This document shows, one piece after another, positions 51,758 to 54,887 of a DNA stretch of 64,000 nt (positions within the stretch are counted from its first letter, which is position 1; each line of letters starts with the position of its first letter). The DNA comes from Paracoccaceae bacterium (GTDB lineage Bacteria; Pseudomonadota; Alphaproteobacteria; Rhodobacterales; Rhodobacteraceae). The notes beneath the pieces were generated by a model. It was not told where the DNA came from, did no database searches, and worked only from the letters and a program-made list of their open reading frames with translations. The position numbers and the translations under genes are program-made. The stretch lies in NCBI GenBank assembly GCA_014239455.1, contig JAAZYV010000018.1, forward strand, positions 62,001 through 126,000, written 5' to 3'.

Positions 51758-52606
51758 ATGAAAAATAAACAATCTTTTTCAAAAATTTCCCGAGCTAAGG
51801 TCAACCTTTCTTTGCATGTGGTGGGTAAGAGATTTGATGGATACCATTGTCTTGATAGCCTAGTAGCATTCCCGCGGGTTGGAGATGAGATTTCTATAGA
51901 ACCTTCTAGGAATATAGATTTTAGGGTGGTGGGTAGGTTTGCCGATAAATTAAAAAGTAGAGAAAACCTTATTTTAAGTGCTGTCGATCTTTTAAATCAC
52001 GATGGCAAGGGTGCATCAATCATTTTGAATAAGGATCTTCCTATATCCGCAGGTTTGGGAGGGGGGTCTTCTAATGCAGCGTTGGTCCTGAGAATGCTAA
52101 CAAAGCTTTGGAACCAACCCTTACCATCTATCGACAATTTAATTTCTCTAGGTGCTGATGTTCCAGCTTGCTTAGACTGGGATTTGAAAAGAATGCAGGG
52201 CAAGGGGGAGATCCTTGAAAAAGTAAAGGAACCACCCACTATTTGGATTGTGTTGGCAAATAGAGGAGAAAAAGTTTCCACAAGAGTAATTTTCAACGCA
52301 GTTCAGACTTTTAATAATGAAGGATTAGGAAAATTACCAATTTTTAAGACCAAGAACATATTTTTAGACTATTTGCATGATCAAAGAAATGATCTTGAGC
52401 CACCAGCTTTAAAACTTTTCCCACAAATCATGACTTTACTAAATGCTATTAGAAATACTTCGGGTTGTAAGATTTCCCGTATGTCGGGATCAGGAGCAAC
52501 TTGCTTTGGCCTTTTCTTAAAAGAGAGTGATGCGCAAAAGGCAAGTCAAGACTTGGCTAAGAGTTTCCCCAAAGCATGGATAAGAGTTGCTCAACTCTTT
52601 TCATGA
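51758..52606 (+). CDS. ispE: 4-diphosphocytidyl-2-C-methyl-D-erythritol kinase
   Basis: Kinase of the non-mevalonate isoprenoid pathway. The 282-residue GHMP kinase has 'AKVNLSLHVVGKRFDGYHCLDSLV', the ATP loop 'PISAGLGGGSSNAALVLR' and 'SRMSGSGATCFGLF'. It feeds the polyprenyl synthase encoded convergently next door, whose 3' end overlaps it by 6 bp. Confidence 0.96.
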   Translation: MKNKQSFSKISRAKVNLSLHVVGKRFDGYHCLDSLVAFPRVGDEISIEPSRNIDFRVVGRFADKLKSRENLILSAVDLLNHDGKGASIILNKDLPISAGLGGGSSNAALVLRMLTKLWNQPLPSIDNLISLGADVPACLDWDLKRMQGKGEILEKVKEPPTIWIVLANRGEKVSTRVIFNAVQTFNNEGLGKLPIFKTKNIFLDYLHDQRNDLEPPALKLFPQIMTLLNAIRNTSGCKISRMSGSGATCFGLFLKESDAQKASQDLAKSFPKAWIRVAQLFS

Positions 52607-53596
52607 GGAGCGTTGAACAATGGTTTCACTCACTTTGCCTAGCAGGTGAGTAATGTTGTTTTTGGGTAATTTCTGAAGAGATTTGTTGGCAATGTTAGAC
52701 CATTTTCTAGCTGCCATTTTAGTTTCTTCCAGTGTTTCATATTTCTCCATGATTCTAATAATTTTGAATAAATCCTCTGAATCTTTAGGTTCTTTGAGGA
52801 GAGAGTTCTTTATAAGTTCTCTTTCTGTAGAATTGCCTTTTTTTAGTGCTGAGATTAGAGGGAAGGTTAGTTTTGCACTATTAAAATCATCACCAATACT
52901 CTTCCCCATGTTCAAAGGGCTGCCTTTATAATCGAGATAATCATCAATTAACTGAAAGCTCAAACCAATTGCTTTCCCATAGCACTTAAAATTCTCTATG
53001 TATTCCAGATGGCTTGATGAAATCATTGCCCCCGTTTGAGAGGCGGCAGAGAATAGTGCAGCAGTTTTACCTTCTATTATTTTCATATATGTTTCAATTG
53101 AGGTCCTCACGTTTCGCACTTGGGATAACTGTAAAACTTCACTTTCGGCAATTACAGCTGAGGTGTCAGACAAAACTTCTAGAATTTCAAGGGAATCTGT
53201 AGAAACCATTAATTGAAAAGCTCTGGAAAACAAAAAGTCACCAACAAGTATAGAAGATTGATTGTTCCAAAGTATATTAGCTGTTTTAGTTCCTCTCCGG
53301 GTGGAACTTTCATCGACTACATCGTCATGCAGTAGCGTAGCAGTATGGATAAACTCTATACTAGCAGCCAAAAGGATATGTTTGTCCTCAGCATAATCCA
53401 AGGCTCGTGCTGTAGCTAAGCACAGCAGAGGACGTAATCTCTTTCCTCCAGCTGAAAAAATATAGTTTGAAATTTCTGGAATTTTGGGAGCATTTTCTGA
53501 TGTCATCATCTTTTTGATTATGTCATTCATTGCATTCAAATCATCTTTAAGTAAGACTTGAAGCTCAGCGATGGGATTTATTTCATTCATTTTCAA
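52601..53596 (-). CDS. Polyprenyl diphosphate synthase (octaprenyl/decaprenyl type)
   Basis: Makes the long isoprenoid tail of ubiquinone. The 331-residue trans-prenyltransferase has the first aspartate-rich motif 'LLHDDVVDESSTRRG' and the second 'QLIDDYLDYKG', with 'GGKRLRPLLCLATARAL' near the start. Homologous to IspB/DdsA; product length (C40 or C50) cannot be read by eye. It converges on ispE and diverges from the trmN6-like gene. Confidence 0.94.
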   Translation of the reverse strand: MKMNEINPIAELQVLLKDDLNAMNDIIKKMMTSENAPKIPEISNYIFSAGGKRLRPLLCLATARALDYAEDKHILLAASIEFIHTATLLHDDVVDESSTRRGTKTANILWNNQSSILVGDFLFSRAFQLMVSTDSLEILEVLSDTSAVIAESEVLQLSQVRNVRTSIETYMKIIEGKTAALFSAASQTGAMISSSHLEYIENFKCYGKAIGLSFQLIDDYLDYKGSPLNMGKSIGDDFNSAKLTFPLISALKKGNSTERELIKNSLLKEPKDSEDLFKIIRIMEKYETLEETKMAARKWSNIANKSLQKLPKNNITHLLGKVSETIVQRSS

Positions 53597-53781
53597 CTAA
53601 ATACAAAGGGTCTTAGGTCTCATTTCTGGGTGCAGACCATACTTATATGATATAAATTCTTTGATCAAAGAAATGTTAGATGCTTTCATGGAATTTTGAA
53701 AATTTTCTTTTGAATACTTTTTAATTAATCTGGTTATGGTAACTTATGATATGGGTATTATCCTTCTAGAGATGCAGTCGC

Positions 53782-53951
53782 ATATGAAATTGATTCAAAA
53801 TGAGTTCACCGATGATTCTTTCCTGGTTGACAGATTAAGATTACTACAACCTAAGAAGGGTTTTGTATATGAAATTGATTCAAAATGAGTTCACCGATGA
53901 TGCTTTCCTAGGTGGCAGATTAAGATTACTACAACCTAAGCAAGGTTTCAG
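53782..53951 (+). repeat. Divergent 85-bp tandem duplication of the trmN6-like gene start
   Basis: Copy 1 (53782-53866) and copy 2 (53867-53951) match at about 76 of 85 positions with no gap. Copy 2 is the functional 5' end of the methyltransferase gene. Copy 1 keeps the ATG and reads 'MKLIQNEFTDD' like the real start, but because the unit is 85 bp, not a multiple of three, its frame leaves the gene and stops at 53886-53888. The result is a 34-codon ORF (53784-53888) overlapping the true start codon by 20 bp. Confidence 0.93.
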
Positions 53952-54630
53952 AGCAGGTATTGACTCAGTATTATTGGCAGCTTCAATCACTGCTTGTTCT
54001 GGTGATACTGTACTAGATGTTGGGACAGGTACGGGTGCGGTATTATTTTGCTTGATGAACAGAATACCTAGTTTGCGAGCCATTGGTATTGAATTACAAG
54101 AAGAATGTTATTCCCTAGCATTAAAGAATTCTGAGAAAAACAACCTTAAAGCCAAGATTTTGTTAGGAGATTTTCAATCTCTGGAGAATGATTTAAAGGA
54201 TTATAATTTTGACCACATATTTTTTAATCCACCCTATTACTCTGAGCGTACATATAAAAAATCTGGAAATAGTGCTCGTGAATTAGCAAATATAGAAAAA
54301 CCTGGAATGCTAGAAAAAATGTTGAGATTCTCTCTAAAGCGCTGCAAACCATATGGGATCATCACTTTAATTAATCGGCCGGCGAAGTTAGGTGCAATTT
54401 TGTCAGTACTTGAAAAGGGTGCAGGAGACATAAAGATTTTACCAATCTTAAGTTCAGGCAGAAATTCAACATTTAGAATGATTGTTCGAGCCAGAAAATC
54501 AGCTAAAGGTGAAACAAAATTATTAGAGGGGCTAAATTTGTTTCAAACCAATTTGGAGGGAAAGGAAAGCAGGAAATATTCACCACGCGTAATAGAGGTT
54601 TTAGAACAGGGTGGACCTTTGAGCTTTTGA
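53869..54630 (+). CDS. tRNA1(Val) (adenine-37-N6)-methyltransferase-like protein (TrmN6 family)
   Basis: A 253-residue class I methyltransferase. 'RLRLLQPKQGFRAGIDSVLLAASI' is the family's N-terminal block, 'VLDVGTGTGAVLFCL' the SAM site and 'FFNPPYYSER' the NPPY catalytic motif of amino-methyltransferases. Members of the TrmN6/YfiC family methylate A37 of tRNA-Val. I use the ATG at 53869 ('MKLIQNEF'). Its 5' end is duplicated in tandem just upstream, and the 34-codon upstream ORF overlaps its start. DUF465 follows on the same strand. Confidence 0.87.
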   Translation: MKLIQNEFTDDAFLGGRLRLLQPKQGFRAGIDSVLLAASITACSGDTVLDVGTGTGAVLFCLMNRIPSLRAIGIELQEECYSLALKNSEKNNLKAKILLGDFQSLENDLKDYNFDHIFFNPPYYSERTYKKSGNSARELANIEKPGMLEKMLRFSLKRCKPYGIITLINRPAKLGAILSVLEKGAGDIKILPILSSGRNSTFRMIVRARKSAKGETKLLEGLNLFQTNLEGKESRKYSPRVIEVLEQGGPLSF

Positions 54631-54716
54631 AAATTTTAATTGCATGCGAGTAAATTTAGGTTAATACTTAGGGTAAGGAGTTTAGGGGAGGCACATCATT
54701 GATTTGGGAGGTTCCA

Positions 54717-54887
54717 ATGACTTTGGAGGCGTATGTGAGTGGGTTGCGGAAAAAACATGCTAAGCTGAGTTCATTAGTAGATCGCGAGCAAAAGAGACCG
54801 GCCCCAAATTTTACTACTCTTACTGACCTAAAAAAGAAAAAATTGCATGTTAAGCAGGAAATTTCTAAAGCTTTAGAAATTAAGTGA
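54717..54887 (+). CDS. DUF465 (YdcH-like) protein
   Basis: A 56-residue helical protein: 'MTLEAYVSGLRKKHAKLSSLVDREQKRP' and 'LTDLKKKKLHVKQEISKALEI'. This is the DUF465 pattern of two charged helices linked by a short turn. Function unknown. The ATG at 54717 matches family starts better than the track's 54699; GGAGG lies close upstream of the latter, so the longer form is not excluded. Confidence 0.82.
   Translation: MTLEAYVSGLRKKHAKLSSLVDREQKRPAPNFTTLTDLKKKKLHVKQEISKALEIK

What the first reader, a model, noticed from the sequence alone, without database searches (positions are those of the whole stretch)
53782..53951. Tandem duplication of the trmN6-like gene start creates a 34-codon upstream ORF overlapping the true start
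Two adjacent 85-bp units match at about 89%, far above chance. The second is the real gene start. The first keeps an ATG and the gene's first residues but is out of frame, ending 20 bp inside the functional ORF. The divergence shows the duplication is not brand new, yet the first copy keeps an open frame of 34 codons, so it may have been retained as a translational leader: ribosomes ending at 53888 could re-initiate or block the start at 53869. It could equally be a decaying relic.
Basis: partly seen in the sequence, partly recalled or inferred. Interest (0 to 1): 0.6.

Follow-up and report, generated by a model that had tools for sequence, protein, structure and literature searches.

The report
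Duplicated gene start, probably decaying relic
In one uncultured Rhodobacteraceae-like bacterium the first 85 bases of a methyltransferase gene have been copied in tandem, leaving a short out-of-frame upstream reading frame that looks like a neutral, decaying leftover rather than a conserved control element.

Summary
Positions 53782-53866 and 53867-53951 are adjacent 85-bp copies, 76/85 identical; shuffled sequence gives at most 42/85. The second copy starts a TrmN6-like methyltransferase (53869-54630). The first carries an ATG at 53784 and a 34-codon frame ending at 53888, 20 nt inside the gene. None of the 11 other genomes of the genus has the duplication, including two with 91-92% protein identity. 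The conserved upstream flank abuts copy 1, so copy 1 holds the ancestral start position and copy 2 became the working start. Copy 1 has 4 private changes in its 26 gene-derived codons, 3 of them amino-acid changing; two destroy conserved glycines (22/29 and 28/29 homologues), whereas the gene itself is under purifying selection (dN/dS about 0.13). An open frame survives 4 random substitutions about 80% of the time, so its survival is not evidence of selection. The duplication also put a moderate Shine-Dalgarno-like AGAAGGGU, formed by Lys-Lys-Gly codons, 7 nt before the new ATG, but 14% of random sites score as well. Best reading: a lineage-specific duplication whose first copy is a neutral relic, the gene now using the second start. 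A weak uORF effect cannot be excluded. Low interest.

The parts
53782..53866 (+). Copy 1 of the 85-bp tandem duplication (at the ancestral start position, now probably a relic)
   Evidence: TRF; 76/85 identity; its upstream flank is the one conserved in relatives
53784..53888 (+). 34-codon upstream ORF: MKLIQNEFTDDSFLVDRLRLLQPKKGFVYEIDSK*
   Evidence: ORF listing (within the 53736-53888 frame); no protein-family match
53867..53951 (+). Copy 2 of the duplication, the start of the functional gene
   Evidence: of codons 1-26 only codon 25 has a change private to copy 2
53853..53861 (+). SD-like AAGAAGGGT inside copy 1 (the Lys-Lys-Gly codons), upstream of ATG 53869
   Evidence: Duplex energy -5.1 kcal/mol for AGAAGGGU at 7-nt spacing, versus -2.9 for the copy-1 start and -1.2 in L032 and L034; 14% of random positions score as well
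53869..54630 (+). TrmN6-like class I SAM methyltransferase, 253 codons plus stop
   Evidence: Pfam methyltransferase hits, weak NCBIfam TrmN hit well below cut-off, 59 of 61 searched genomes have a match, dN/dS 0.13 against L032
53597..53781 (.). Divergent intergenic region between the polyprenyl synthetase gene (minus strand) and the methyltransferase, conserved up to copy 1
   Evidence: Alignment with L032 and L034

Best explanation
A short tandem duplication, probably by replication slippage or microhomology-mediated misalignment, copied the last 2 nt of the leader and about the first 80 nt of the TrmN6-like gene in the lineage of this genome, after it split from its closest sequenced relatives. 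Because 85 is not a multiple of 3, the first copy is out of frame with the gene, and translation of the intact protein must start at the second copy's ATG (53869). That start is served by a moderate SD-like sequence that happened to lie in the Lys-Lys-Gly codons of the duplicated segment. Copy 1 is released from protein constraint and is drifting. It may still be translated as a 34-aa nonsense peptide, with at most a weak incidental effect on the gene. Shown: the duplication, its absence from relatives, the loss of conserved residues in copy 1, and conservation of the gene. Inferred: the duplication mechanism, neutrality of copy 1, and use of ATG 53869.
For: The two closest relatives (L032, L034) have one copy, and the alignment shows the extra unit as a clean insertion. 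The other nine genomes of the genus have no second copy upstream of the gene: best ungapped self-match 35-40 of 85, against 76 of 85 here. In 298 genomes of the family only the own genome matches both copies. Both copies share ACC at codon 9 where both relatives have TCA, which places the duplication after the split. Copy 1's private changes are A12S, a silent change at L14, G15V and G16D; across 29 homologues codon 15 is G in 22 (else D or S) and codon 16 is G in 28, and V15 and D16 occur in none. Gene codons 27-253 against L032: dN 0.039, dS 0.297, ratio 0.13. P(no stop after 4 random substitutions) is 0.80-0.85. The leader has no unusual RNA structure (z = +1.75, less stable than most shuffles) and no Rfam match.
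Against: Copy 1 has only 4 private changes, so neutrality is not proved: 3 nonsynonymous to 1 synonymous fits neutrality, but the numbers are small. The four changes fall within 14 nt (P about 0.014 for random placement; noticed after the fact). The first 35 bp of the two copies are identical and the SD-like element of copy 1 is unchanged. The new start has a better SD than the relatives' starts, which could be a benefit.
Confidence: 0.8

Rival explanations
1. Copy 1 is a functional upstream ORF that controls the methyltransferase. Ribosomes translating it open or occlude the start at 53869, or re-initiate there after stopping at 53888, and the arrangement is kept by selection.
For: Start codon and frame are intact, with an SD-like element inside the uORF 7 nt before the gene's ATG. 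Synthetic nonsense ORFs with an internal SD next to a target ORF boost translation in E. coli (PMC13255528).
Against: Frame survival is expected without selection. The uORF exists in one genome only. In published spacing data coupling falls steeply with increasing overlap and is absent at -25 nt (PMC12548453); here the spacing is -20. In the synthetic boosters the stop lies next to or before the target AUG, not 17 nt beyond it. The start region is about as accessible as in relatives (opening energy 8.6 versus 8.9 and 9.7 kcal/mol), so there is no special inhibitory structure for coupling to relieve.
Confidence: 0.12
2. Assembly artefact: the tandem copies are two strain variants of the same gene start joined by mistake in a metagenome assembly.
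For: The genome is a fragmented draft (29 contigs, 73% complete), so strain mixture is possible. The copies differ at several sites, as alleles would.
Against: An assembler needs reads across the novel junction GGGTTTTGTATATG, which is not seen in any relative. The copies share the derived ACC codon. Copy 1's changes break conserved residues, which is not expected of a functional allele. The locus is about 18 kb from the nearer contig end.
Confidence: 0.06
3. A +1 frameshift within copy 1 joins the uORF to the gene and makes a protein with a duplicated N-terminus.
For: The gene's frame is open for 30 nt upstream of ATG 53869, leaving a short stretch in which a shift could occur.
Against: No relative has such an extension; the duplicated segment would carry the damaged motif LVDRL; no recognised +1 shift signal was seen by inspection; an ATG with an SD-like element is already present.
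Confidence: 0.02

Closest known systems
Short tandem duplication by replication slippage or microhomology (general bacterial mutation class)
   Same: Adjacent direct copies, clean insertion relative to relatives, no mobile element in the unit
   Different: Happens to lie over a gene start, so it creates an overlapping out-of-frame uORF; the copies have already diverged by about 10%
Translational coupling by overlapping ORFs (termination-reinitiation; PMC6728339, PMC12548453)
   Same: Co-directional ORFs that overlap, SD-like element in the 3' part of the upstream ORF
   Different: Overlap is 20 nt instead of the commonest 1, 4 or 8 nt; not conserved in any relative; coupling untested
Synthetic 'nonsense peptide' upstream ORF boosters (HESP, PMC13255528)
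   Same: A short upstream ORF with an internal SD just ahead of the target AUG
   Different: Engineered, with the stop next to or upstream of the target AUG; here the stop lies 17 nt beyond the start of the AUG and no boost has been shown
TrmN6/YfiC-type tRNA(Val) A37 N6-methyltransferases (NF047853)
   Same: Class I SAM methyltransferase with an FNPPY motif; conserved LGG(R/K)L...QP..G(F/Y)R N-terminus among alphaproteobacterial homologues
   Different: Scores 34.9 bits against a family cut-off of 350; substrate unknown

Membership tests
Short tandem duplication | Two adjacent direct copies of one segment, well above chance | tested here: met
   76/85 identity, against at most 42/85 in shuffles
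Short tandem duplication | Single copy in close relatives at the same site | tested here: met
   Alignment with L032 and L034 shows one copy; the other nine genus members also single
Regulatory upstream ORF | Conservation of the uORF across relatives | tested here: not met
   No relative has it
Regulatory upstream ORF | Selection on the peptide or on the open frame | tested here: inconclusive
   4 private changes, 3 nonsynonymous, two at conserved sites; frame survival expected by chance at about 0.8
Regulatory upstream ORF | Translation of the uORF affects the downstream gene | not testable with these tools
   Needs reporter fusions or ribosome profiling
Termination-reinitiation coupled pair | Stop and start codons within a few nt of each other | tested here: not met
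   Spacing is -20 nt; coupling is most efficient between -4 and +3 nt (PMC12548453)
TrmN6 tRNA A37 N6-methyltransferase (NF047853) | Score above the curated NCBIfam cut-off | tested here: not met
   34.9 bits against 350; the name 'TrmN6-like' is descriptive only

The most novel reading that the evidence does not exclude
The duplication gave the methyltransferase a new leader ORF that measurably raises or damps its translation: a natural case of a regulatory uORF born in one step from the gene's own start, with a Shine-Dalgarno element recruited from its Lys-Lys-Gly codons.
Probability: 0.1. Interest if true: 0.45.

Novelty: new member of a known kind. Interest (0 to 1): 0.15.

Why it matters
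If neutral, it is one more short tandem duplication that happens to fall on a gene start; it matters mainly for annotation, because a gene caller could call a false small gene or misplace the start. If the uORF proved functional, it would show that a regulatory leader can arise in a single duplication event, with the ribosome-binding site taken from the gene's own codons. That is testable with a simple reporter.

Tried and rejected
Assembly stutter: judged unlikely, because the copies differ, share a derived codon and lie inside a long contig. True start further upstream at the ATG at 53736: the frame is open there in L032 and L034 as well, but 10 of the 16 residues vary among the three genomes, so it is probably not coding. 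RNA structure or riboswitch in the leader: no Rfam match, fold less stable than shuffles. Promoter near the array: the sigma-70 scan found no more sites than chance. Copies elsewhere: none in the own genome, no match in plasmids. The genome's 16S gene is cut off before its 3' end, so the anti-SD was taken as the standard CACCUCCUUU. Two relatives (L011, L012) were first read on the wrong strand and redone.

Full report
OBSERVATION. The two 85-bp units at 53782-53866 and 53867-53951 are real: TRF finds period 85 with no indels and score 292, and direct comparison gives 76 of 85 identical bases. No other adjacent repeat of period 40-300 in the window exceeds 57% identity, and in 20 shuffles adjacent 85-mers never exceed 49%. 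The described ORF (ATG 53784, TGA ending at 53888, 34 codons) and its 20-nt overlap with the gene beginning at ATG 53869 are correct. In about 327 kb of this genome that was scanned, other long-period arrays exist (63 bp x 5.4, 102 bp x 3.5, 29 bp x 2.2), so tandem duplications as such are not unique here.

THE GENE. The product is a class I SAM-dependent methyltransferase with an FNPPY motif. The nearest named families are TrmN6 and PrmC, but all NCBIfam hits are far below their cut-offs, and the nearest solved structures are 'putative methyltransferases' (3lpm, 7wm6). A match is present in 59 of 61 searched genomes. The gene lies divergently from a polyprenyl synthetase gene (52601-53596, minus strand) and upstream of a small DUF465 protein. 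The closest relatives are metagenome-assembled Paracoccaceae/Rhodobacteraceae genomes.

ORIGIN. Two close relatives (L032, 92% protein identity; L034, 91% over the first 101 residues) have one copy, and the alignment shows the extra unit as a clean insertion. The other nine genomes of the genus give one gene match each and no second copy upstream (best ungapped self-match 35-40 of 85). Of 298 family genomes searched with the 170-bp array, only the own genome and that of L032 match, the latter over a single unit. The conserved intergenic sequence abuts copy 1, so copy 1 sits at the ancestral start, and copy 2 runs on into the gene body. Both copies share codon 9 ACC where both relatives have TCA, so the duplication followed the split from them.

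FATE OF THE COPIES. Polarised with the relatives, copy 1 has four private changes in 26 codons: A12S, a silent change at L14, G15V and G16D; copy 2 has K25Q. In 29 homologues position 16 is Gly in 28, and position 15 is Gly in 22 and otherwise Asp or Ser; Val15 and Asp16 are not seen. Codons 27-253 of the gene show dN/dS of about 0.13 against L032. Copy 1 therefore looks released from protein constraint. From 4 changes in 78 bases, against a per-lineage synonymous divergence of about 0.15 (half of 0.297), the duplication is very roughly a third as old as the split (inference, wide error). One oddity remains: the four changes fall within 14 nt (P about 0.014, post hoc).

HOW IT PROBABLY WORKS. 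The gene is most likely translated from ATG 53869. An SD-like AGAAGGGU lies 7 nt before it (-5.1 kcal/mol), better than the starts of the two closest relatives (-1.2) and of copy 1 (-2.9), and reached by a third to a half of the window's genes; but 14% of random positions score as well, so it may be luck. L034 has the same AAGAAGGG inside its coding sequence, so the element was not made for this purpose. The start region is about as accessible as in relatives, and the leader folds less stably than shuffles. If copy 1 is translated, its ribosomes pass over the gene's start and stop just beyond it. Published spacing data indicate weak or no coupling at such overlaps (PMC12548453). Mild interference or a mild boost (compare PMC13255528) cannot be excluded from sequence.

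VERDICT. A real, lineage-specific tandem duplication of a gene start that is old enough to have diverged. Most likely copy 1 is a neutral relic, with a small chance of an incidental or selected uORF effect. Ordinary by kind; low interest.

Noticed in passing
L064 604-945 (G000:C15): Tandem array of a 63-bp unit, 5.4 copies, 94% alike; a multiple of 3, so possibly a repeat inside a coding sequence.
   Followed up: no
L050 3734-4087 (G000:C11): Tandem array of a 102-bp unit, 3.5 copies, 74% alike; a period of 34 codons suggests TPR-type protein repeats.
   Followed up: no
L058 5978-6042 (G000:C8): 29-bp unit in 2.2 perfect copies (TTCAACCTAGGCTTAAAAACGTATCTGAG), a recent tandem duplication.
   Followed up: no
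53690-53731: Stretch of the intergenic region (AATTTTGAAAATTTTCTTTTGAATACTTTTTAATTAATCT) identical to L032 and nearly so in L034, possibly a promoter; the consensus scan did not call it.
   Followed up: partly
L033 1-478 and L034 3001-3303: In the relative genome G003 the assembly breaks inside this same methyltransferase gene (two contig ends, around codons 95-101).
   Followed up: no
54699-54887: Small DUF465-family protein directly downstream of the methyltransferase.
   Followed up: no
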